64,000 nucleotides of DNA, from assembly GCF_011067745.1 (NCBI RefSeq), contig NZ_JAAMPJ010000001.1, positions 1,040,829 to 1,104,828 on the forward strand. Direction: 5' to 3'. Positions 4,454 through 19,524 of this stretch are shown piece after piece (positions within the stretch are counted from its first letter, which is position 1; each line of letters begins with the position of its first letter). Under the pieces are notes generated by a model. It was not told the origin of the DNA. It did no database searches and saw nothing but the letters and a program-made list of their open reading frames with translations. A program made the position numbers and the translations under genes. This DNA comes from Lentzea alba (GTDB lineage Bacteria > Actinomycetota > Actinomycetes > Mycobacteriales > Pseudonocardiaceae).

Positions 4454-7400
4454 GTGTCCAGCAGCAGTCCTGCGTCACAATTCGGGCCGAACGAGTGGCT
4501 CGTCGAGGAGATGTACGAGCAGTTCCTCGCGGACCCGTCATCCGTAGACCCGGCATGGCATGACTTCTTTGCCGACTACAAGCGTGCGGGCGGCAACGGC
4601 AGTACCGCCGCCACGGCCAGCGCGGGTGGTGCCACGGCCACCACGACCGCGACCGTGACGCCGCCGGCCGCCGACAACGGCAAGGCCGCGCCCGCCGCAC
4701 CCAAGCCGGCCGCGCAGCCCAAGCCCGCGGCCACGCTGCCGCAGACCGGCAAGCCCGCGCCCCAGCAGGCCGCGAAGGCCGCCCCGGTCACGCCGAGCGC
4801 GCAGCCCGAGCAGAAGCAGTTGCGCGGTGCCGCCGCCGCGATCGCGAAGAACATGGAGCTGTCGCTCACCGTTCCGACCGCGACCAGCGTGCGCGCCGTG
4901 CCCGCCAAGCTGCTGGCCGACAACCGCATCGTCATCAACAACCACCTGAAGCGGACGCGCGGCGGGAAGGTCTCCTTCACGCACGTCATCGGCTACGCGG
5001 TGGTCCGGGCGCTGCAGGCCTACCCGAACATGAACCGGCACTACGCCGAGGACAACGGCAAGCCGTTCGTCGTCACGCCGGAGCACGTGAACTTCGGCCT
5101 GGCGATCGACCTGCCCGGCAAGGACGGGCAGCGCACGCTGGTCGTCGCGTCGGTCAAGGGCTGCGAGAACATGACGTTCACGCAGTTCTGGCAGGCCTAC
5201 GAGGACCTGATCCGCAAGGCGCGCTCCGGCTCGCTGACCGCGGACGACTTCTCCGGCACCACGATCTCGCTGACCAACCCCGGCACGATCGGCACGAACC
5301 ACTCGGTGCCGCGGCTGCAGGCCGGTCAGGGCGCGATCATCGGTGTCGGCGCGATGGAGTACCCCGCGCACTTCCAGGGCACCAGCGAGCAGGCCCTGAC
5401 CGACATGGGTGTCAGCAAGATCATCACGCTGACCTCCACGTACGACCACCGCATCATCCAGGGTGCGGAGTCGGGCGAGTTCCTCAAGCGCATCCACCAG
5501 CTGCTGCTGGGCGAGGACGGCTTCTACGACGACATCTTCGCGTCGCTGCGGCTGCCCTACGAGCCGATCCGCTGGGTCGCCGACATCCCCGAGGGCGCGG
5601 TCGACAAGACGGCCCGCGTCATCGAGCTGATCGACGCGTTCCGCACCCGCGGCCACCTGATGGCCGACACGGACCCGCTGAACTACCGCCAGCGCTCCCA
5701 CGCCGACCTGGACGTGCTCAGCCACGGCCTGACGCTGTGGGATCTCGACCGCGAGTTCCCGGTCGGCGGGTTCGCCGGCCAGGAGCGGATGAAGCTGCGC
5801 GACATCCTGGGCGTGCTGCGCAACTCGTACTGCCGCACCGTCGGCGTCGAGTACATGCACATCCTGGAGCCGGAGGAGCGCCGGTGGATCCAGGACCGCG
5901 TCGAGGTTCCGCACGAGAAGCCGCCGGCCACCGTGCAGAAGTACATCCTCAGCAAGCTGAACGCGGCTGAGGCGTTCGAGACGTTCCTGCAGACGAAGTA
6001 CGTCGGCCAGAAGCGCTTCTCGCTGGAGGGCGGCGAGACCGTCATCCCGCTGCTCGACGCGGTGCTCGACAAGGCCGCCGAGCACGAGCTCGACGAGGTC
6101 GTCATCGGCATGCCGCACCGCGGCCGGCTGAACGTGCTCGCGAACATCGTCGGCAAGCCGATCTCGCAGATCTTCCGCGAGTTCGAGGGCAACCTCGACC
6201 CCGGTCAGGCGCATGGCTCCGGCGACGTGAAGTACCACCTCGGTGCCGAGGGCAAGTACTTCCGGATGTTCGGCGACGGCGAGACCAAGGTGTCGCTGAC
6301 CGCGAACCCGTCGCACCTCGAGGCCGTCGACCCGGTGCTCGAGGGCATCGTGCGCGCCAAGCAGGACCTGATCGACCGTGGCGGCGACTTCTTCCCCGTC
6401 CTGCCGGTCGCCCTGCACGGTGACGCGGCGTTCGCAGGTCAGGGTGTCGTCGCCGAGACGCTGAACCTGGCGCTCGTGCGCGGCTACCGCACCGGTGGCA
6501 CGGTCCACATCGTCGTCAACAACCAGGTCGGCTTCACCACCGCGCCGGAGCACTCGCGGTCCTCGAAGTACTCGACCGACGTCGCGAAGATGATCGGCTC
6601 GCCGGTCTTCCACGTGAACGGCGACGACCCCGAGGCCTGCTACTGGGTCGCGAAGCTGGCCGTCGACTACCGCCAGGCGTTCCACAAGGACGTCGTGATC
6701 GACATGGTCTGCTACCGCCGCCGCGGCCACAACGAGGGCGACGACCCCTCGATGACGCAGCCGGCGATGTACGACGTGATCGACCAGAAGCGCTCGGTCC
6801 GCAAGACCTACACCGAGTCCCTGATCGGCCGCGGCGACATCACCGTCGAAGAGGCCGAGAAGGCGCTGCAGGACTTCTCCAGCCAGCTGGAGCACGTGTT
6901 CAACGAGGTCCGCGAGCTCGAGAAGCACCCGGTGACGGTCAGCCCGTCGGTGGAGGCCGAGCAGCAGATCCCGGCGAAGCTGCCCACCGGCATCTCGCGC
7001 GAGGTGCTGGAGCACATCGCCGACGCGCACGTGAACCTGCCCGACGGCTTCACGCCGCACGCCCGCGTCAAGCCGGTGCTGGAGCGCCGCGCGAAGATGG
7101 CGCGCGAGGGCGGCATCGACTGGGCGTTCGCGGAGCTGCTCGCGCTCGGCTCGCTGTCGATGGAGGGCCGCAAGGTCCGCCTGGCCGGTCAGGACTCGCG
7201 CCGCGGCACGTTCGTGCAGCGCCACGCGACCCTGGTCGACCGCAAGACCGGCGACGAGTACACGCCGCTGCAGAACCTGTCGGACGACCAGGGCAAGTTC
7301 ATGGTCTACGACTCGGTGCTGTCGGAGTTCGCGGCGGTCGGCTTCGAGTACGGCTACTCGGTCGCGAACCCGCAGGCGATGGTGCTGTGGGAGGCGCAGT

Positions 7401-8143
7401 TCGGCGACTTCGTCAACGGCGCGCAGCCGATCATCGACGAGTTCATCTCGTCCGGTGAGGCCAAGTGGGGTCAGCGTTCCGACGTCGTGATCCTGCTGCC
7501 GCACGGCCACGAGGGCCAGGGTCCCGACCACACGTCGGGCCGCATCGAGCGCTGGCTGCAGCTGTGCGCCGAGGGCTCCATGACCGTCGCGGTGCCGTCG
7601 ACCCCGGCGAACTACTTCCACCTGCTGCGCCGCCACGCCCTCGACGGCGTCGACCGCCCGCTCGTGGTGTTCACGCCGAAGTCGATGCTGCGCCTCAAGG
7701 CAGCCGTCAGCGGCACCGAGGAGTTCATCAGCGACCGCTTCCACTCGGTGATGGACGACCCGACGATCAAGGACCCGAACGCGGTCACGAAGGTCCTGCT
7801 GTGCAGCGGCAAGATCTCCTACGAGCTGCACGCCGAGCGCGAGAAGCGCGGCGGCGGCGACGTGGCGATCGTGCGCGTCGAGCAGCTCTACCCGGTCCCG
7901 GCCCGCAAGCTGACCGAGACCCTGGAGCGCTACCCGAACGCGAAGGACGTCCGCTGGGTGCAGGAGGAGCCGGCGAACCAGGGCGCCTGGCCGTTCTACG
8001 GTCTGGCCCTGCCGGAACTGCTGCCCGAGCACCTGGGCACCGTCCGCCGCGTGTCGCGCCGCCCCATGGCCGCCCCGTCGGCCGGTTCGAGCAAGGTGCA
8101 CGAGGTCGAGCAGCGCGAGATCATCACCCGCGCGTTCGAGTAA
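4454..8143 (+). CDS. kgd: Multifunctional 2-oxoglutarate decarboxylase/dehydrogenase E1-E2 (Kgd/OdhA type)
   Basis: 1229 residues from a GTG start, the usual size for the actinobacterial enzyme that fuses an E2-like succinyltransferase domain to the ThDP-dependent E1 of 2-oxoglutarate dehydrogenase. Order: N-terminal E1 segment ([19 protein letters not shown]), Ala/Pro/Thr-rich linker (about 50-120), E2-type acyltransferase (about 125-365, with [15 protein letters not shown] near 330), then E1 ([11 protein letters not shown] near 550, ThDP/Mg motif HVNGDDPEA near 720, and the C-terminal transketolase domain). No lipoyl domain is present, as in Mycobacterium and Corynebacterium, where lipoate comes from the pyruvate dehydrogenase E2. 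Central TCA-cycle enzyme, cytosolic. Confidence 0.97.
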
Positions 8144-8160
8144 ACCTCGACCGACCGACC

Positions 8161-8200
8161 GAGCCGCCGGATCCGACCTGGGTCCGGCGGCTCGTTTCTT
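8161..8200 (+). terminator. Rho-independent terminator after kgd
   Basis: GAGCCGCCGGA (8161-8171) pairs perfectly with TCCGGCGGCTC (8183-8193), followed by GTTTCTT. It lies between kgd and the small downstream gene and may attenuate rather than fully separate their transcription. Confidence 0.75.
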
Positions 8201-8223
8201 GAGACGACACAGGAGTTTCAGCC

Positions 8224-8400
8224 ATGTACTTCACCGATCGCGGTATCGAGGAGCTCGAGAAGCGGCGCGGCGAGGAGGAGATCAGCTTCGCGCTGCTCGC
8301 CGACAAGCTGCGCGCTTTCGTCGACGCCAACCCCGACTTCGAGACGGCCATCGAGCGCTTTGCCACCTACCTGGCGCGCGACGACGACTTCGAGGACTAG
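8224..8400 (+). CDS. Small conserved DUF6104-like protein
   Basis: 58 residues beginning MYFTDRGIEELEKRRG and ending in an acidic tail, RDDDFED. AGGAG lies 10 bp before the ATG. A protein of this length and start is commonly found immediately downstream of kgd in actinobacteria, annotated DUF6104; that is from memory. It is acidic, probably helical, and has no signal or membrane segment. Function unknown; the fixed position suggests a link to Kgd, which is inference. Confidence 0.8.
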   Translation: MYFTDRGIEELEKRRGEEEISFALLADKLRAFVDANPDFETAIERFATYLARDDDFED

Positions 8401-8449
8401 TCACCAGGAATAGCGTCACATCCTGTGCATCTGGTGCGACTACAGGTGC

Positions 8450-11098
8450 ATGGGGAAGATCCTCGGCCTGCTCGGCGCCGCCATCGCACCACCGGCAGCC
8501 GCCTTCGCGTTCCTGCAGACCTGGGCCAAATCGCATCCCCTGCAGGCACTCCTGCTGCTCGCGGCCTACGAGGTCGTGGTCCTGGGACTGGGTTTCGTGG
8601 GCAAGCTCGTCGGCGGCACCGCCGACGAGCTGCGCAACCGCTGGAAAGACCCGCTCGCCAAGACGATCGACGAGGGCACCCGCCGCCGACTGTCCAGATT
8701 CGAACGCCGCTACCGCGAGTCGGTGCTCGGCAGCCTGAGGTTCATCGACCTCAAGGGCCTTGCCACGATGGGCTTCTACACGCCCGAGCTGGACGAGGTG
8801 TTCGTCGACGTCAGCCTGGTGCACAGCGATCCGTCGAAGGTGCCCTCGGACGTGCTGGGGCAGGCGCGGGTCGAGTCCACCCGCCGCTTCATCGGCGACC
8901 TGATCGACCAGCCGAAACCGGTGGTGCTCGCCGTGATCGGTCCACCGGGCTGCGGCAAGACGACACTCCTGCGGCACACCGCTCTGCTGATGTGCCGCAA
9001 GCGCCGCCGCCGTCGCCGCATCCCGGTGCTGTTCTACCTCCGCGATCACGTCCAGGAGATCATGGAGGGCACCTGGCTCCCGGACCTGCTTCACCGAGCC
9101 GCACCTCCCCCGGGCTGGTTCGAGCAGAAGCTGCGCGGCGGCTCCTGCGTGATCCTCCTCGACGGACTCGACGAGGTCGCGGACCAGCAGAACCGGCGCG
9201 AGGTCTCGAACTGGGTCGAGCAACAGATCGCGAGCTATCCGGCGAACGACTTCGTGATCACTTCCAGGCCGCAGGGCTACCAGACGGCGCCGATCTCGGG
9301 CGCCGACATCGTGCAGGTTCGCGGTTTCACCGACCATCAGGTGACGCGGTTCGTGCACGGCTGGTACTTCGCGTTCGAGAAGCGCAGCACGGGCGACAAG
9401 TCGGCCGATGTGGTCCAGCGCGCCGAGGCGGAGGCGACCGACCTCCTGGAACGCCTGCACCAGAACCCGACGCTGTACGAGCTCACGGTGAACCCGTTGC
9501 TGCTCACGATGATCGCGAACGTGCACAAGTTCCGCGGTGCGCTACCGGGCAGCCGCGTGGACCTGTACGGCGAGATTTGTCAGGTGCTGCTGTGGCGTCG
9601 TCAGGAGGCCAAGAAGCTCTCGTCCGAGCTGACCGGCGACCAGAAGATGACGCTCCTGAGCGGACTCGCGTACTCGATGATGAGCAGCCGGCTCCGAGAC
9701 ATCACCCGTGATCAGATCAAGATCGAGTTCCGCTCGTTCCTGCGACGCATGGCGCGTGGGATGGACGAGGACGAATTCCTGGCGGACATGACGTCGAGCG
9801 GCCTGCTGCTCGAACGCGAGCGTGACCTCTTCGCCTTCGCGCACCTCACTTTCCAGGAGTACCTGGCGGCACATCACATCCGCGAGAAGCAGCTGACGCA
9901 GGTGCTTGTCGACAACGTCGACGACGTGTGGTGGCGCGAGACCACACTGCTGCACGTGGCCCGCGCGAACGCCGACCCGATCGTCCAGGCGTGCCTCGAC
10001 TCCGGGACGGTCCGGGCGCTGTCCCTGGCGTTCGACTGCTCTGACGAGGGCAACGAGCTGGCCCCAGAGCTTCGGACGGCTCTGGACCAGCTGTTGGAGA
10101 CGGCGTTCAAACCGGGCTCGGACCCGACGATGCGCGGACTCATGACCCGTGTGGTGGCGTCACGGCATCTGCGCAAGGTCGTGCGCACCGACCAGGGCAC
10201 CCGCGTGTGCACCGAACCGGTGACGAACCGCATCTACCGGTTGTTCCTGGAGTCACAGCCACACCGCACACCCGACGGACCGTTCGGCGGACCTGACAAA
10301 CCTGTGCAGGGCGTTCGGCAAGACGACGCAGACGTGTTCGTCAACTGGGTCAACGAAGGCATCGCGGTCGAGCAGACCTTCCGCCTCGTCCGTCTCGCAG
10401 AGCTGATGTCGCCGCCACTGGCGAAGAAGCTCGACGGCCTCGCCCCATGGCTCGACGACCCGGTGTCAGTGCCCTACGGCGCAGAGCAAACCGTGTTTTC
10501 CACTGCCGAGCTGCACGATGAAGCCCAGAACGACCTGGCGTTGTCACCTGAGATCATCGCGGTTCTGGAGCGGATCAAATACGCCGTGGAATCGAGGGGA
10601 ACGCTGTACCTGAACCAGCCACGACTGCAGGTGCTGAAGCTGGGCCGTTTCCCCAGTGGCACACCATACGAAGGCATGATCGGCCAAGCACTTCTGCGTA
10701 CCGTCCACAACTCCGTGAAGTACCCGGAGGCAGCGCACTCCGGGTTCCCCAGCGCTTTTGGCGATGTAGTCGGCCCGCGGGCCGACTACAAGACCGTCGC
10801 ACTCCCCGGCTTGTTCGGTGACCTGATCACAATGGTGCGAGATGCCCCGATGTCTACCTGGGGACAGGCAACCCTGTCGGGCTTCGCCGACGTCGCTGAT
10901 GCAGTCTTTTCCAGGATCAGACCGCTGACAGGTGCGCTGGCGAGGGAGTTGCGGATCGCTGCGTTGTGCCTCGCTCTGGAGACCGATGCCGAACACGCGG
11001 TTCTCTTCCGCGAGCTCGCCGTCGGTTTGTCGATCATGCAACGACGCGCCGACGGCAGACTCCCCGCGAACGAAACGATCGTGCTGGCTACCGACTAG
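8450..11098 (+). CDS. NACHT-domain NTPase with N-terminal membrane segment (NLR-like)
   Basis: 882 residues. A hydrophobic stretch at about 31-55 suggests membrane tethering. A STAND/NACHT NTPase follows: Walker A GPPGCGKTT (164-172), Walker B VILLDGLDE (234-242) with the small-residue-plus-two-acids pattern typical of NACHT, sensor-like ITSRP near 265, then TVNPLLLTMI and the FAHLTFQEYLAAHHI element (about 462-476) seen in NACHT winged-helix regions. The last 400 residues are helical-looking with no recognisable repeats, perhaps the sensor. Bacterial NACHT proteins include anti-phage NLR-like proteins (bNACHT). It stands alone, so an immune role is inference. Confidence 0.88.
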   Translation: MGKILGLLGAAIAPPAAAFAFLQTWAKSHPLQALLLLAAYEVVVLGLGFVGKLVGGTADELRNRWKDPLAKTIDEGTRRRLSRFERRYRESVLGSLRFIDLKGLATMGFYTPELDEVFVDVSLVHSDPSKVPSDVLGQARVESTRRFIGDLIDQPKPVVLAVIGPPGCGKTTLLRHTALLMCRKRRRRRRIPVLFYLRDHVQEIMEGTWLPDLLHRAAPPPGWFEQKLRGGSCVILLDGLDEVADQQNRREVSNWVEQQIASYPANDFVITSRPQGYQTAPISGADIVQVRGFTDHQVTRFVHGWYFAFEKRSTGDKSADVVQRAEAEATDLLERLHQNPTLYELTVNPLLLTMIANVHKFRGALPGSRVDLYGEICQVLLWRRQEAKKLSSELTGDQKMTLLSGLAYSMMSSRLRDITRDQIKIEFRSFLRRMARGMDEDEFLADMTSSGLLLERERDLFAFAHLTFQEYLAAHHIREKQLTQVLVDNVDDVWWRETTLLHVARANADPIVQACLDSGTVRALSLAFDCSDEGNELAPELRTALDQLLETAFKPGSDPTMRGLMTRVVASRHLRKVVRTDQGTRVCTEPVTNRIYRLFLESQPHRTPDGPFGGPDKPVQGVRQDDADVFVNWVNEGIAVEQTFRLVRLAELMSPPLAKKLDGLAPWLDDPVSVPYGAEQTVFSTAELHDEAQNDLALSPEIIAVLERIKYAVESRGTLYLNQPRLQVLKLGRFPSGTPYEGMIGQALLRTVHNSVKYPEAAHSGFPSAFGDVVGPRADYKTVALPGLFGDLITMVRDAPMSTWGQATLSGFADVADAVFSRIRPLTGALARELRIAALCLALETDAEHAVLFRELAVGLSIMQRRADGRLPANETIVLATD

Positions 11099-11101
11099 CC
11101 A

Positions 11102-12094
11102 TCACCAGGCGTAGGCCTCCGGCGCCGGCTTCGACCCGTTCGGCGCCGGCGCCGGGAACAGCTCGTCCAGCTTCCCCAACACCTCCGCGTCCAGCTTCAA
11201 CTCCGCGGCCCGCAACGAGTTGTCGAGCTGCTCGACAGTGCGCGGCCCGATGATCGGCGCCGTGACACCGTCCTGGTGCAGCAGCCAGGCGAGGCCGACG
11301 TTGGCCGGGTCCTCCCCCAACTCCGCGCACAACTTCTCGTAGGCGTCGATGGTGTCGCGGTACTTCTCCAGTGCGTCCGCGGAACGCCCGGACGAGCTGC
11401 GGGATGCCCCACCTTCGCGCTGCTTGCGCAGGACGCCGCCCAGCAGGCCGCCGTGCAGCGGCGACCACGGGATCACGCCGAGGCCGTAGTGCCGAGCTGC
11501 CGGCAGGACTTCCAGCTCGATCCAGCGGGTCATCAGGTTGTAGATGGACTGCTCGGACACCAGGCCGAGGAAGCCGCGGGTGCGGGCGGCCTCGGCTGCC
11601 TGGGCGATGTGCCAGCCGGCGAAGTTCGACGAGCCGAAGTAGATGACCTTGCCCTGCTGGCGCAGCACAGAGAAGGCTTCCCAGATTTCGTCCCACGGCG
11701 TTTCGCGGTCCACGTGGTGCATCTGGTACAGGTCGATGTAGTCGGTTTGCAGGCGCTTCAGGGAGGCGTCGCAGGCGCGGCGGATGTTCAGCGCAGACAG
11801 CTTGGTCTCGTTGGGCCAGTCGCCCATGCTGCCGTAGAGCTTGGTGGCCACGACCGTCTTCTCGCGACGGTCGCCACCCTGGGCGAACCACCGGCCGATG
11901 ATGTTCTCGGTGACGCCCTCGCCCTTCTTCCAGCCGTAGACGTTGGCCGTGTCGAAGAAGTTCAGGCCGTGTTCGTGGGCGCGATCCATGATCGCGTGAC
12001 TGTCGGCCTCGGTCGTCTCGGGACCGAAGTTCATCGTGCCGAGGCACAGGCGGGAGACGGACAGGCCGCTGCGACCGAGGTTGGTGTACTCCAT
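11102..12094 (-). CDS. Aldo/keto reductase
   Basis: 330 residues starting MEYTNLGRSGLSVSRL; a GTG three codons upstream (12103) is the alternative start. AKR fold with the catalytic tetrad visible: Asp and Tyr in FFDTANVYG, Lys in VVATKLYG, His in YQMHHVD. The C-terminal cofactor-binding strand APIIGPRTVEQLDN is typical. NADPH-dependent reduction of aldehydes or ketones is expected; substrate unknown. It ends 3 bp from the convergent NACHT stop, with no obvious terminator between. Confidence 0.92.
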   Translation of the reverse strand: MEYTNLGRSGLSVSRLCLGTMNFGPETTEADSHAIMDRAHEHGLNFFDTANVYGWKKGEGVTENIIGRWFAQGGDRREKTVVATKLYGSMGDWPNETKLSALNIRRACDASLKRLQTDYIDLYQMHHVDRETPWDEIWEAFSVLRQQGKVIYFGSSNFAGWHIAQAAEAARTRGFLGLVSEQSIYNLMTRWIELEVLPAARHYGLGVIPWSPLHGGLLGGVLRKQREGGASRSSSGRSADALEKYRDTIDAYEKLCAELGEDPANVGLAWLLHQDGVTAPIIGPRTVEQLDNSLRAAELKLDAEVLGKLDELFPAPAPNGSKPAPEAYAW

Positions 12095-12159
12095 GTCCAC
12101 CACCCTGCACCGCGGCGCGGCGGTGTGCCACGTGGAGTTGCTCCAGGCGACACGGGCCT

Positions 12160-13407
12160 TCAGCGGCCGGCTTTTCGGCTCACTTCCGACTCGAACAGGT
12201 TCGCGGCGATCGAGAGTCCTCCCGACACCGTGGAGTCGGGCCGGAGAACGAACGTCCGCGTCGCGGACGGCCTGCCGGTGATGGAGAACCTCAGCGGTGA
12301 GGACATGCCGCCCGATTCCACGCTTTCGACCTCGCGGAACGCCTTGAGGACGCCCTCGCGCGAGAAGTCCTTGTGGTCGCAGGCCCGCTGCAGCACCGAG
12401 CCGAAGCTCAACCCGACCAGGTAGCCGTAGTTGACCGCCATGGACGGAACCCCCTGCGGATAAGTCGACCGGTACGCCGCCGCGACCTGGCGCGGGCCGG
12501 CGATCGCGGAATCGAAGGGGGCGACGGACGACAGCACGAAGACCTGACGCTCCATGACGGTCGCGAGTTGTCCCTGCAACAGCTCAGGAGCGAAGCCGGG
12601 ATTGTTGATGATGATCGGAACGGTGAGCCCGAGTTGCGCGGCAGCGGCGACGGCACTCGCTGTCTGCCGCGGGTTGGTGCTCAGGACGACCGCCTTCACG
12701 CCGGCTTGTTTGAGAGCCGCCATTCCCGGCGACATGTCCGGGTCAGCGTTCTTGAGCGACGCCTTGGTGAGGTTGAGGCCGAGTTGTGCGACAGCGAAAG
12801 AACTACCGGAGAGGGCGTCGTCACCGTATTCGGCCTCGTCGCTGATGTGCAGGTGGCCCACCGTGTCGCCACGACTGAGCAGGCCCTCTCGCATCAGGTG
12901 TTCGATGCCGTTCATGACATCGACCTTGTAGGTCGCCCCCACCACCATCATGTACGGGTTGTCGAGCAGGGCGCTTTTCCACGAGGTCGGCGCCATCAGG
13001 ATCTGCTGGTGGAGCATGTCGTCCTCGATCGACTCGGCGATCTGCGCTCCGACGAGCTGGACGAAGCCGAGCACCTCGGGCTCCAGGGACAGGTACTCCT
13101 TTTTCCCCTTTTCGGTGTCGAACGCGTGATCGCGCACGATCAGTTCGACTTTCCTGCCGCAGATGCCGCCTTCGGCGTTCACCTTGTCGACGAAGAGCTG
13201 ATTGCCCTCGGTGACGTTCTTGCCGCCCGAGGCGAAGGGCCCGGAGAGATCGCTCAGCACACCCAGGAAGATCTTGTCCTGCGTTACTCCAGGGCCGCCG
13301 CGAAAGCTGCCGTTCGAGTTCGCGGAATCACCGCTCTCTTCGCCACAGGCCGCCAGAAGAACCGCAGCCATGACCAAAGGAAGTAACCCACGGGGATTCG
13401 CGGACAA
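12160..13407 (-). CDS. Lipoprotein, type-1 periplasmic binding protein (branched-chain amino acid-like)
   Basis: 415 residues with a lipoprotein signal: LLPLVMAAVLLAAC, lipobox Cys near 21. The rest matches Leu/Ile/Val-type (LivJ/type-1) solute-binding proteins: VLSDLSGPFASGGKNVTEGNQ at the start of lobe 1 and VNAEGGICGRKVELI. No permease or ATPase gene is adjacent, so it is an orphan that may use a transporter elsewhere or serve as a ligand sensor. Divergent from the subtilase gene across a 304-bp gap. Confidence 0.85.
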   Translation of the reverse strand: MSANPRGLLPLVMAAVLLAACGEESGDSANSNGSFRGGPGVTQDKIFLGVLSDLSGPFASGGKNVTEGNQLFVDKVNAEGGICGRKVELIVRDHAFDTEKGKKEYLSLEPEVLGFVQLVGAQIAESIEDDMLHQQILMAPTSWKSALLDNPYMMVVGATYKVDVMNGIEHLMREGLLSRGDTVGHLHISDEAEYGDDALSGSSFAVAQLGLNLTKASLKNADPDMSPGMAALKQAGVKAVVLSTNPRQTASAVAAAAQLGLTVPIIINNPGFAPELLQGQLATVMERQVFVLSSVAPFDSAIAGPRQVAAAYRSTYPQGVPSMAVNYGYLVGLSFGSVLQRACDHKDFSREGVLKAFREVESVESGGMSSPLRFSITGRPSATRTFVLRPDSTVSGGLSIAANLFESEVSRKAGR

Positions 13408-15953: not shown

Positions 15954-17087
15954 TCAGATGACTCGTTCGCCCCGTTGCCACACCGAATGCGTCAACGGGA
16001 CGCCCGGACGGTAAGCCAGATGCGTGATCGACGGCGCGTCCAGCACGTGGAGATCCGCCCGTGCACCAGGCCTGATCACGCCGACGTCGTCCCTGCGCAA
16101 CGCCCGCGCGCCACCCGCCGTCGCCGACCACACCGCTTCCTCGACGGTCATCCGCATCTGCAGGACCGCTGTCGTCACGCAGAACGCCATTGACGAGGTG
16201 TAGGAGGAGCCGGGGTTGCAGTTGCTGGCCAGCGCGACCGCGGCACCGGCGTCCAGGAGGGCGCGGGCGGGCGGCAGCGACTGACGGGTCGACAGGTCGC
16301 ACGCGGGGAGCAGCGTGGCGACCGTGTCCGACGACGCGAGCGCGTCGACGTCCTCCTGCGACAGGTAGGTGCAGTGGTCGACCGAGGCGGCGCCGAGTTC
16401 CACCGCGAGCCGCACGCCGGGACCCTCGCCGAGCTGGTTGCCGTGCACGCGCAGGCCCAGCCCCTTCTCCCGCGCGGCCACGAGCACGGCCTTCGACTGG
16501 TCGTAGTCGAACGCGCCCTTCTCGCAGAACACGTCGGCCCAGCGCACGAGGGGCGCGACGGCGTCGAGCATCTCGCCGCGGACCAGGTCGACGTAGGTGT
16601 CGGCGTCTTCGCCGGGCGGGACGAGGTGGGCGCCGAGGAACGTCACCTCGTCGGCGTGCTCGGCGGCGATGCGGGCGCTTCGCACCTCGTCCGGGACGTT
16701 CAGGCCGTAGCCGGTCTTGGTCTCCACGAACGTCGTGCCCTGCTTCAGGGCCTCGGCGACGTGCTTGCGGACGACCTCCGCCAGTTCGGCGTCGGTGGCC
16801 TGCCGGGTCGCGTTCACCGTCACGGCGATCCCGCCCGCGGTGTAGGGCTTGCCGGCCATGCGCGCACCGAACTCGGCGGTGCGATCGCCCGCGAACACCA
16901 GGTGCGTGTGGCTGTCGACCCAGCCGGGCAGCACGGCGCGCCCCTCGACGTCGACGCGCTCGTCCGCTGCCGGGGCGCTTCCCGAGTGCCCGACCCAGGC
17001 GATCTCCGAGCCGTCGATGATCAGCGCGTCGCCGGCGGCCTCGCTGTTCGTGGTCAGCTCACCGATGCCGGTGATCAGCACGCTCAT
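15954..17087 (-). CDS. hutI: Imidazolonepropionase
   Basis: 377 residues. Converts 4-imidazolone-5-propionate to N-formimino-L-glutamate, third step of histidine degradation. Amidohydrolase fold with metal and substrate motifs: [50 protein letters not shown] and SNCNPGS. The ATG overlaps the hutF stop by 4 bp, so an upstream extension to 17849 in the same frame is rejected. Last gene of the hut operon. Confidence 0.96.
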
Positions 17088-18358
17088 GCCCACAGCTCCT
17101 CGATCGCGTCCGTCAGCAGCCTGCCGACGTCTCCCAAAGTCTCGTGCACGCCACCGCTCGCGACCACCCGGCCGCCGACCACCACGGTGTCCACATCGGA
17201 CGCCGTGGCCGACAGCAACACCTGCTGCGGCAACGAACCCGCGGTGCGCGGAGTCGAGCAGCTGATCGCCACGAGGTCGCACGGCGCGCCGACCTCGATG
17301 CGTCCACCGTCCCAGCCGAGCGCGGAGTGACGAGTGGCGGTTTCGAGCAGTTCGGCCGGCGAGAACCGTCCGCGCCGGCCGGTGCGGAGGCGTTCGTTGT
17401 GCTCCAACGCGCGGGTTTCCAGCAGCGGGTCGATCACCGCGTGCTGGTCGCTGCCCAGCGACAACGGGCTGCCCGCGTCGGCCAGCTCGCGAGCCGGGCC
17501 GATGCCGTCGGCCAGGTCGGCCTCGGTGGTCGGGCAGAAGCACGCGCCGGTCCCCGTGTCGCCGAGGGTTGCGATGTCCTCGGGCGTCAGGTGCGTGGCG
17601 TGCACGGCCGTCGTGCGTGGTGACAGCGCGCCGGCTTCTTGGAGAAGCCCGGTCGGGGTGAGGCCGTACGCCGCGAGGCACGCCTCGTTCTCCGCCGGTT
17701 GTTCGGAGAGGTGGACGTGCAGCGGCGCGTCTGGAAATGCTTGCGCCACCACGGGAAGCTCGGCTCGCGGGACCGCGCGGACCGAGTGGATCGCGGCGCC
17801 GACCTTCATCACGTCGTCGGACTTGAGCTCGGCGACTCTGGACGCCCAAGCCTCGGCGGTGCCGTCGGAGAAGCGTTGCTGGACCTCGTTGAGCGGTTGG
17901 TCGATGCCGCCCGCGAGGTAGCAGGTGTCGAGCAGGGTGAGGCGGATGCCCGCGTCACTCGCGGCTTCTCTGAGGGCATACCCGAACTCGTTCGACCGGT
18001 CGTGCACGTAGTGGAACTCGCCCACGGACGAGACCCCGGCGAGCGCCATCTCGCCGTAGACCGCGCGGGCGAGTCGGTAGTACGACTGCGGGGTCAGTTT
18101 GGAGGCCAGCGCGTACATGCCTTCGCGCCACGTCCAGAACGTGCCGCCACCGTCGTGCGTGCGGCCTCGCAGCGCGCGGTGGAACGCGTGCGAGTGGGCG
18201 TTCGCGAAGCCCGGCACGACAACGCCGTACAGCCTGCGCACACCCAGCGGAATGGTGTCCACTGTGGACACGCTGGCGATCACGCCGTTCTCGACCCTGA
18301 TCAGCACGCGTTCGGCGAGCCCGCCGGGCAACCAGGCTCGCTCACACCAGAAGTTCAT
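17084..18358 (-). CDS. hutF: Formimidoylglutamate deiminase
   Basis: 424 residues. Hydrolyses N-formimino-L-glutamate to N-formyl-L-glutamate and ammonia. Amidohydrolase/deaminase family: [16 protein letters not shown] (first His pair), [32 protein letters not shown], and the terminal metal Asp in [12 protein letters not shown]. Start overlaps the preceding amidohydrolase stop by 4 bp and its own stop overlaps hutI by 4 bp, indicating translational coupling. Carries an internal 17-bp palindrome (18255-18271). Confidence 0.95.
18255..18271. repeat. 17-bp perfect odd-centred palindrome inside hutF
   Basis: GTGTCCAC-T-GTGGACAC, perfectly symmetrical around one base. Shorter forms of the same element occur at 18726-18740 and 22304-22316, all inside hut operon genes. 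Confidence 0.8.
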
Positions 18359-19524
18359 GAGCCGAGGTGTTCGATCGTCGCGGCCAGCGCCCGCACGCCC
18401 TCGTCGACGTCGGCCTGTTCGGCGAACTCCTCCGGCGCGTGGCTCACGCCGGTGGGGTTGCGCACGAACAACATCGCGGTCGGCACGTGCTCAGCGAGGA
18501 TGCCCGCGTCGTGGCCCGCGCCGGTCGGCAACGCCGGAACGCCGCCGAGCGCTCCCGCGATGTCGTCGCGGAGCTTCGGGTCGAAGTGCACGGTGTCGCC
18601 GTACGACTCCTCGGTGATGGTCACCTCGCAACCCTCCTCCTTGGCGGCCTGGTGCGCCGCTTCGGAGATTTCCGCGACCATCGCACGGGTGCGCGCGTCG
18701 TCGCTGTCCCGCGCGTCCAGCCACACGTCCACAGTGGACGCAATGACGTTCGTGCCACCGGGGTTGGGGACGAGCCGTCCCACGGTGGCACGCCCGCCGT
18801 CGCGAGCCGCCCGTCGAGCGGCCAGGACCAGTTGGGACGCCGGCAGCATCGGATCGCGGCGGTCCTCGATCAGCGTCGCGCCGGCGTGGTTGCCCTCGCC
18901 GGAGAACGTGAAGCGCCACCGGCCGTGCGCGAGAATGCTGCTCGCCACGCCCACCGGCACCGTCAGGCCGCGCCCCTGTTCGACGTGCAGCTCGACGAAC
19001 TGGCCGATGCGCTTCAGGGCGCGCTCGTCCTTGCCGACCAGATCAGGGTTGTAGCCGGCGGCCTTCATGGCCTCGGCCAGCGTGATGCCGTCCGGGTCCT
19101 TGAGGTTCAACGCCTTCTCCGGGGAGATGGCGCCGGTCAGCAGCCGGGAGCCGAGGCACGCGACGCCGAACCGACCGCCTTCCTCTTCGGCGAAGACCGT
19201 GATGGCGAACGGCCTGCCCGGCTTGAACCCCTTGGCCTGCAACAGATCGACGGCCTGCAGCGAGCTGGTCACGCCGAGCGGGCCGTCGAACGCGCCGCCG
19301 CCGGGCACCGAGTCCAGGTGGCTGCCGGTGATGAGCGCGTTGTCGCCGCGCTCGCCCCACCACGCCCAGAGGTTGCCGTTCTGGTCGGTCTCGACGTTGA
19401 GGCCGCGCTTGACGGCCTGTTCGACGAACCAGTGGCGGAGCTCGAGTTCCGGCTTGGTGTAGCCGTGGCGCGAGTAGCCGCCGCGCTTGAGGTCCCGGCC
19501 GACATCGGTGATCTGGTCGAGCAT
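18355..19524 (-). CDS. M20-family amidohydrolase (allantoate amidohydrolase-like) in the hut operon
   Basis: 389 residues from the ATG that overlaps the hutU stop by 1 bp (TGATG); a longer in-frame extension to 19743 lies inside hutU and is rejected. Metallo-carboxypeptidase-like N-carbamoyl-amino-acid/allantoate amidohydrolase fold: metal motifs ITGSHLDSVPGGGAFDG, FAEEEGGRFG, ELHVEQGRGL, and PTGAGHDAGILA near the end. No HutG is encoded here, and HutF makes N-formylglutamate, so this enzyme is a good candidate for removing the formyl group. The same gene order is known from Streptomyces (from memory). Exact substrate is inferred. Confidence 0.88.
   Translation of the reverse strand: MLDQITDVGRDLKRGGYSRHGYTKPELELRHWFVEQAVKRGLNVETDQNGNLWAWWGERGDNALITGSHLDSVPGGGAFDGPLGVTSSLQAVDLLQAKGFKPGRPFAITVFAEEEGGRFGVACLGSRLLTGAISPEKALNLKDPDGITLAEAMKAAGYNPDLVGKDERALKRIGQFVELHVEQGRGLTVPVGVASSILAHGRWRFTFSGEGNHAGATLIEDRRDPMLPASQLVLAARRAARDGGRATVGRLVPNPGGTNVIASTVDVWLDARDSDDARTRAMVAEISEAAHQAAKEEGCEVTITEESYGDTVHFDPKLRDDIAGALGGVPALPTGAGHDAGILAEHVPTAMLFVRNPTGVSHAPEEFAEQADVDEGVRALAATIEHLGS
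18726..18740. repeat. 15-bp palindrome inside the M20 amidohydrolase gene
   Basis: CGTCCAC-A-GTGGACG; shares the GTCCAC-N-GTGGAC core with the copies in hutF and hutH. Confidence 0.8.

What the first reader, a model, noticed from the sequence alone, without database searches (positions are those of the whole stretch)
8450..11098. Orphan membrane-tethered NACHT NTPase: candidate single-gene immune system
A complete NACHT core (GPPGCGKTT, VILLDGLDE) follows a hydrophobic N-terminal stretch instead of a recognisable effector domain. Bacterial NACHT proteins with short N-terminal effectors or membrane segments act in phage defence. The 400-residue C-terminal part shows no repeats I know and could be a new sensor. 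The gene sits between housekeeping genes (kgd/DUF6104) and an aldo/keto reductase with no partner.
Basis: partly seen in the sequence, partly recalled or inferred. Interest (0 to 1): 0.7.

Follow-up and report, generated by a model that had tools for sequence, protein, structure and literature searches.

The report
Membrane NACHT receptor with hypervariable sensor
A filamentous bacterium carries a membrane-anchored, NOD-like (NACHT) protein whose sensor is built on half of a C-type-lectin-like domain interrupted by a very fast-changing stretch, as might be expected of an immune or self-recognition receptor, though no function has been tested.

Summary
The gene is real: an intact 882-residue NACHT protein at 8450-11098 with two predicted N-terminal membrane segments. 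The "unknown" C-terminus can partly be named. Residues ~585-675 are the first half of an FGE/C-type-lectin-fold domain (Pfam FGE-sulfatase in 29 of 56 family C-termini at E<=1, best 5e-8; their profile against PDB, best E 1.3e-9). The catalytic half is missing; in its place lies a hypervariable insert (33-319 aa; 15-50% identical to the window in six genus copies compared) and a conserved tail. At the kgd|aldo/keto-reductase slot, of 24 genus genomes 8 carry the gene, 8 are empty, 7 hold other cargo and 1 is unassessable. The same kgd-AKR-hut segment holds other lineages of this family in two more genera. No reverse transcriptase was found in the genome, so a diversity-generating retroelement is unlikely. 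Best reading: a single-gene, membrane-tethered NLR-like receptor, probably an abortive-infection sensor; self/non-self recognition and non-immune signalling are rivals. NACHT plus C-type-lectin sensors are already described; the split, non-retroelement form and recurrent site are the new parts. Function is untested; structure prediction was never available.

The parts
8450..11098 (+). TM-NACHT-split FGE/C-type-lectin gene, 882 aa, whole
   Evidence: 56 homologs
8459..8509 (+). predicted membrane segment 1 (residues 4-20)
   Evidence: hydropathy; at least one N-terminal segment in 62 of the 66 proteins counted
8549..8599 (+). predicted membrane segment 2 (residues 34-50)
   Evidence: hydropathy; two segments in 36 of 66
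8630..8923 (+). pre-NACHT linker (residues 61-158), best conserved at 101-120
   Evidence: conservation profile
8924..9364 (+). NACHT NTPase (residues 159-305), Walker A 164-172, Walker B 236-242, ITSRP 270-274
   Evidence: Pfam E 1.1e-14; motifs
9365..10189 (+). conserved part after the NACHT domain (residues 306-580) with FAFAHLTFQEYLAA at 461; helical nature is inference
   Evidence: conservation; motif
10202..10474 (+). first half of an FGE/C-type-lectin-fold domain (residues ~585-675)
   Evidence: window alone 590-652 at E 0.15 and 0.04
10475..10939 (+). hypervariable insert (residues ~676-830)
10940..11095 (+). conserved C-terminal tail (residues 831-882), possibly the last strand of the lectin-like fold
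   Evidence: the strand assignment is inference
8224..8400 (+). small ORF between kgd and the slot (reader: DUF6104); marks the upstream edge of the slot, not part of the receptor
11102..12103 (-). aldo/keto reductase; marks the downstream edge of the slot, not part of the receptor

Best explanation
A single-gene, NLR-like immune receptor of filamentous actinomycetes. Shown by sequence: one or two N-terminal hydrophobic segments, NACHT NTPase core, a half FGE/C-type-lectin domain followed by a hypervariable insert, conserved tail. Inferred: the insert and the lectin-like half form the ligand-binding face in the cytoplasm; binding a phage (or other invader) component releases autoinhibition, ATP exchange at the NACHT drives oligomerisation, and the clustered N-terminal membrane segments disrupt the membrane and kill or arrest the infected hyphal compartment.
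For: NACHT core with intact motifs. N-terminal hydrophobic segment in 62 of 66 proteins counted (of 70 examined; 4 not counted), across actinobacterial, cyanobacterial and Anaerolineae relatives. C-terminus: FGE-sulfatase hit in 29 of 56 members at E<=1, best 5e-8, the next family hitting 2 of 56; profile against PDB gives 7spq (ToxD) at 1.3e-9, two chains named 'Lipoprotein, putative' and two PorK/GldK at 0.006-0.008, then a designed miniprotein at 0.16 and formylglycine-generating enzymes from 0.86 (that ToxD and PorK have the FGE fold is recalled); profile-profile with FGE/EgtB-type domains E 6.8e-7. Of 10 C-termini scanned 9 matched, each ending at profile position 111-135 of 255; 4 of 10 pass the Pfam cut-off. 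RGGSW-like and VWEW motifs of the second half are in 0 of 57. Hypervariability: 15-50% identity to the window in 676-830 for six genus copies, against 60-88% in 61-480. Against G022, dN is 0.42 in the insert and 0.05-0.14 in segments 1-580, with similar fourfold divergence in core and 585-830 (0.33, 0.38). Presence/absence at one locus.
Against: No functional data of any kind. No defence island seen: the neighbours are housekeeping or secreted-protein genes. The chromosomal address is shared with two other genera, which is less usual for mobile phage-defence genes. The window copy by itself gives only a weak FGE hit (E 0.15 and 0.04, below the Pfam cut-off). The tail profile matches only one of 15 distant relatives. 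dN/dS is below 1 in every segment of the four pairs computed. No structure could be predicted. Membrane disruption is a guess from topology.
Confidence: 0.5

Rival explanations
1. A self/non-self (kin or hyphal fusion) recognition receptor: allelic variants of the insert recognise a partner in non-self hyphae and trigger death, as fungal NACHT/HET proteins do.
For: Fixed chromosomal address with allele-like divergence between species and patchy presence. G016 and G001 share a NACHT lineage (support 100) although the flanking genes pair G016 with G004 (support 76), as under trans-species polymorphism or exchange. The comparison with fungal hetero-incompatibility NACHTs is drawn in PMC7159879 (passages).
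Against: 8 of 23 assessable genomes have an empty slot and 7 hold other cargo; hyphal fusion is not established in these bacteria (recalled). No within-species data were available here.
Confidence: 0.2
2. A membrane-anchored STAND signalling regulator (stress, envelope or nutrient), not an immune protein; the insert varies because it is a loosely constrained oligomerisation or linker region.
For: Residence in the kgd-AKR-hut segment in three genera. dN/dS stays below 1 in every segment of the four pairs computed (0.53 in the insert against G022). No defence neighbours seen.
Against: Patchy presence (6 changes on the locus tree; 706 of 2000 label shuffles need 6 or fewer). The hypervariable region lies between a conserved half-domain and a conserved tail, so it is not terminal drift. 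No DNA-binding or other output domain found in the window protein.
Confidence: 0.25
3. A DGR-diversified C-type-lectin/STAND sensor of the kind described in Thiohalocapsa and other multicellular bacteria.
For: Same combination of NACHT and C-terminal FGE/CLec domain (PMC10907252, section 12).
Against: No PF00078 reverse transcriptase in the window's genome at E<=1e-3 (0 of 1; the same search rings in 3 of 14 control genomes). Variation includes large length changes. A search for a template repeat was not run.
Confidence: 0.03

Closest known systems
Bacterial NACHT (bNACHT) antiphage proteins, e.g. bNACHT25, bNACHT12
   Same: Central NACHT between an N-terminal and a C-terminal part, single gene
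   Different: bNACHT25 has an N-terminal nuclease and an NCH1 domain; clade 14 (bNACHT12) has a short SNaCT domain and no discernible effector (PMC12169576, passages); here N-terminal hydrophobic segments and a split lectin-like C-terminus
DGR-associated CLec/FGE-STAND putative antigen sensors (Dore et al. 2024)
   Same: NACHT or nSTAND fused to a C-terminal FGE/C-type-lectin domain, variable sensor, multicellular bacteria
   Different: No reverse transcriptase found; the lectin-like domain is interrupted by a length-variable insert
EruA (NCBIfam NF058535)
   Same: Shares residues 233-480, E 8.6e-13
   Different: 47 bits against an equivalog cut-off of 1000; best stretch covers positions 70-306 of 1318 only
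FGE-fold proteins (ToxD 7spq, PorK/GldK, SUMF1)
   Same: First half of the domain, up to the RLPTEAEW-like strand
   Different: Catalytic half absent, so no enzyme is expected

Membership tests
bacterial NACHT / NLR-related (bNACHT) protein | NACHT module over the Pfam cut-off with intact Walker A and B | tested here: met
   55 bits against 26.7; motifs
bacterial NACHT / NLR-related (bNACHT) protein | C-terminal sensing part and N-terminal output part around the NACHT | tested here: inconclusive
   The anatomy is there; sensing and output are not shown
bacterial NACHT / NLR-related (bNACHT) protein | Antiphage activity | not testable with these tools
bacterial NACHT / NLR-related (bNACHT) protein | Placement in one of the published bNACHT clades | not tested
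   The clade paper is not held
EruA antiphage protein (NF058535) | Whole-protein score over the equivalog cut-off of 1000 bits | tested here: not met
   47.3 bits, residues 233-480
FGE / formylglycine-generating enzyme | Complete domain with the catalytic second half | tested here: not met
   Match stops at profile 111-135 of 255 in the 9 of 10 C-termini that matched; RGGSW-like and VWEW motifs in 0 of 57 (motifs recalled)
C-type-lectin (CLec) fold sensor | Sequence homology to FGE-type CLec domains | tested here: met
   First half only, and by family profile; the window copy alone is below the cut-off:
C-type-lectin (CLec) fold sensor | Complete CLec fold in three dimensions | not tested
   Structure prediction answered busy at all 22 attempts (first, last)
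DGR-diversified STAND sensor | Reverse transcriptase in the genome | tested here: not met
   PF00078 in 0 of 1 genome
DGR-diversified STAND sensor | Template repeat with adenine-specific mismatches to the variable region | not tested
PADLOC-listed defence system | Strong hit to a defence model over most of the protein | tested here: not met
   Best E 6.4e-5 over residues 152-186, the P-loop

The most novel reading that the evidence does not exclude
A non-retroelement route to hypervariable immune receptors in filamentous bacteria: C-type-lectin-fold NACHT sensors diversify by growth, decay and exchange of an in-frame insert placed where the second half of the lectin-like domain would be. In three of eight distant relatives examined the sensor region contains conspicuous multi-copy arrays with units of 6 to 42 bases (score above 80; the window copy has none), and one chromosomal segment (kgd-AKR-hut) is a recurrent home for such receptors although no mobility gene was seen in the intervals examined.
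Probability: 0.2. Interest if true: 0.78.

Novelty: new variant of a known kind. Interest (0 to 1): 0.5.

Why it matters
CLec domains on STAND proteins have been proposed as antigen sensors but, by the authors' own account in 2024, not characterised experimentally (PMC10907252, section 12). This family offers a one-gene version, with no reverse transcriptase found, natural insert variants and empty sites in sister species, so swapping inserts between alleles would directly test whether the insert sets specificity. It also asks why one housekeeping segment keeps holding members of the same receptor family.

Tried and rejected

Positive selection as a simple answer: not supported. dN/dS is below 1 in every segment of the four pairs computed. 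Synonymous divergence by codon counting is higher in 585-830 than elsewhere between the window and G022 (pS 0.477 against 0.317; 1 of 10,000 shuffles, 5 of 881 circular shifts), but at fourfold sites of unchanged residues this disappears for that pair (0.38 against 0.33, 1230 of 5000) and for G007-G004 (0.52 against 0.50, 2209 of 5000), and is weak for G016-G001 (0.54 against 0.41, 143 of 5000). It holds for window-G006 (0.70 against 0.42, 1 of 5000) and G006-G010 (0.69 against 0.34, 0 of 5000). So segmental exchange is supported only for the two pairs that involve G006, and fast in-place change for the others.

Microsatellites in the window copy: none found by Tandem Repeats Finder at score 40 in its sensor. 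Arrays of score 40 or more occur in 15 of 62 cores and 15 of 62 sensors; at score 50 in 3 of 62 cores and 11 of 62 sensors (L149, L152, L153 dropped as fragments).

Tail as a shared last strand: of 15 distant relatives the tail profile finds only the Actinoplanes one, L158 (2.6e-11); the others, the Actinomadura and Streptomyces ones included, score no better than 3000 shuffled decoys.

Recurrent partner gene: among 276 neighbour ORFs (simple gene calling; the 12 widest clusters printed) the only large clusters are the reductase and the hut genes. The cluster with most genera is a kinase/NTPase-like protein in 3 members of 3 genera at varying position; the other cross-genus clusters printed have 2-3 members in 2 genera.

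Structure prediction: answered busy; no fold search was therefore run.

Full report
What is there. The frame 8450-11098 encodes 882 residues without interruption. Pfam finds NACHT at 159-305 (E 1.1e-14), with GPPGCGKTT at 164, LLDGLDE at 236, ITSRP at 270 and FAFAHLTFQEYLAA at 461. Two hydrophobic segments precede it, residues 4-20 and 34-50. The gene starts 49 bases after a small ORF that follows kgd, and it converges on an aldo/keto reductase. It is one of many: the same 10.2-Mb genome shows 36 NACHT matches at E<=1e-3, 20 of them over the Pfam cut-off (150 of 439 candidates scored).

Relatives. Counting the window's own genome, 34 of 99 relatives have a match at E<=1e-20, and 49 of 390 genomes of the family have one at E<=1e-60, from 11 of 46 genera (two candidates scored per genome, so paralogs are undercounted). 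Of the 59 match places only 7, the window included, run to the end of the query; the rest stop at or before residue 714. A Saccharothrix contig there has the same length (15,039 bases) and nearly the same match as one family contig, so the family is probably Pseudonocardiaceae; this is inference. The profile of the C-terminus alone finds 2 of 296 genomes drawn from the phylum, one of them the window's own.

Anatomy of the family. I extracted 56 homologs from 48 other genomes. Per 20-residue block, identity to the window is 33-79% over residues 81-580, falls to 13-23% in 661-820 and rises to 35-47% in 821-880. An N-terminal hydrophobic segment is present in 62 of 66 proteins counted, two segments in 36 (70 examined). 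This is a simple hydropathy count, not a trained topology predictor, and start codons were chosen by alignment.

The sensor. Pfam's FGE-sulfatase domain, a C-type-lectin-fold family, hits 8 of 20 full proteins (E<=1, best 1.7e-6) and 29 of 56 C-termini (E<=1, best 5e-8; homolog L149 was dropped as too short). The window's own hit is weak: 0.15 for the whole protein, 0.04 for the C-terminus. A profile of the 56 C-termini against all PDB sequences returns ToxD (7spq) at 1.3e-9, two chains named 'Lipoprotein, putative' at 0.0064 and two PorK/GldK at 0.0079, then a designed miniprotein at 0.16 and formylglycine-generating enzymes from 0.86; that ToxD and PorK have the FGE fold is recalled. Profile-profile comparison gives E 6.8e-7 (probability 92) with four FGE/EgtB-type domains and 2.8e-15 with five distant NACHT relatives, whose own link to FGE is 2.7e-8. 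Of 10 C-termini scanned singly 9 matched (two only at E 0.03 and 0.09), 4 over the cut-off, each ending at profile position 111-135 of 255. RGGSW-like and VWEW motifs of the second half are in 0 of 57 family members but in 3 of 16 distant NACHT proteins, which carry full domains. So the protein has the first half of the fold; what follows is a variable insert and a conserved tail. In a cyanobacterial relative (L162) the insert is almost absent and KGIRVVRT follows soon after the half-domain, which suggests that the tail is the closing strand. A direct profile test supports tail homology only for the Actinoplanes relative, so this point is inference.

Hypervariability. In six genus copies the insert is 15-50% identical to the window's while residues 61-480 are 60-88% identical. 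Insert length ranges from 33 to 319 (median 204; window 155; 54 sequences). Between window and G022, dN is 0.42 in the insert and 0.05-0.14 in segments 1-580, with fourfold divergence of 0.38 in 585-830 and 0.33 in the core. For window-G006 and G006-G010 fourfold divergence itself rises in the sensor (0.70 against 0.42 and 0.69 against 0.34; 1 and 0 of 5000 permutations), as expected of exchanged segments; for the other three pairs tested it does not, or only weakly. GC3 is 0.892 in the core, 0.752 in the sensor, 0.965 in kgd, 0.925 in the reductase and 0.832 in the next gene; the sensor is lower than the core in 45 of 54 homologs, which are not independent. In three of eight distant relatives examined (L155, L157, L165) the sensor contains multi-copy arrays with units of 6 to 42 bases; the window copy has none. 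The genome has no PF00078 reverse transcriptase at E<=1e-3.

The locus. kgd is present in 24 of 24 genus genomes. Between kgd and the reductase, 8 carry the NACHT gene, 8 are empty (266-405 bases between the protein hits; the small ORF fills the gap in the two inspected, L085 and L104), 7 carry other cargo (secreted lectin-like or lipase-lectin-like proteins, a large membrane protein, a cluster with a radical-SAM-like protein; names by eye), and 1 contig ends too early. On a tree of the flanking genes the presence pattern needs 6 changes (shuffled mean 6.8; 706 of 2000 shuffles need 6 or fewer); that tree is weakly supported. The eight kgd|AKR copies form one clade (support 100). Further along lie hutI-, hutF- and allantoate-amidohydrolase-like genes (window 15960-19524, - strand; names by my reading of the sequences). 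G016 has a second, distant copy between the reductase and hutI. Nine loci of genus g64 sit beside the reductase, eight of them with hutI next on the other side, and two of g27 beside hutI. The g64, g27 and G016 copies fall in different parts of the tree (not every support was printed). So this segment seems to have been occupied more than once by the same receptor family. No other neighbour recurs widely.

How it most likely works. By analogy with NLRs and bacterial NACHT proteins: sensing by the C-terminus, ATP-dependent assembly by NACHT, output by clustered membrane segments. Only the anatomy is shown; ligand, assembly and killing are inferred. Immune sensing of phage is my first choice; self/non-self recognition and non-immune signalling remain open.

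What is known. NACHT or nSTAND proteins with DGR-diversified C-terminal FGE/CLec domains were described in Thiohalocapsa and other multicellular bacteria and proposed as antigen sensors (PMC10907252; passages and section 12). FGS/CLec domains in related conflict systems are discussed in PMC7159879 (passages). Antiphage NACHT proteins with other ends are in PMC12169576 and PMC13092281 (passages). I saw no description of the split form without a reverse transcriptase, or of this chromosomal site, in the listings or in those passages; the original bNACHT survey is not held, so this is not a claim that none exists.

Noticed in passing
G000:C1:70896-72170 (L001), with equivalents in other genus genomes: A distant NACHT paralog (27-29% identical to the window gene) with an open frame of 961-969 codons appears in 17 of the 24 genus genomes; it may be a vertically kept contrast to the patchy window gene. 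Synteny not checked.
   Followed up: no
L157:6084-6386, L155:8406-8770, L165 sensor: Distant NACHT relatives whose sensor is coded partly by arrays with units of 6 to 42 bases; in L155 and L157 these give long Ala/Leu/Asp/Arg runs.
   Followed up: partly
L105:2824-13346 (G023, kgd|AKR slot): The same slot holds a ~10-kb cluster with a radical-SAM-like protein, an NB-ARC/TPR-like protein and a MoxR-like AAA ATPase (names by eye, not searched).
   Followed up: no
L084, L101, L093, L094, L103 (kgd|AKR slot): The slot alternatively holds secreted ricin-lectin-like or GDSL-lipase-lectin-like genes, so it takes more than immune cargo (names by eye).
   Followed up: no
window 7001-13407: Between the window and G022, the last 380 codons of kgd have synonymous divergence 0.046 but the reductase 0.28 and the next gene 0.31, a steep step across a few kilobases.
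   Followed up: no
alignment A3 (56 C-termini): One member hits Bac_transf at 9.4e-57 and one VMAP-C at 0.0012 (the table does not name the members): possibly fused or swapped C-terminal domains.
   Followed up: no
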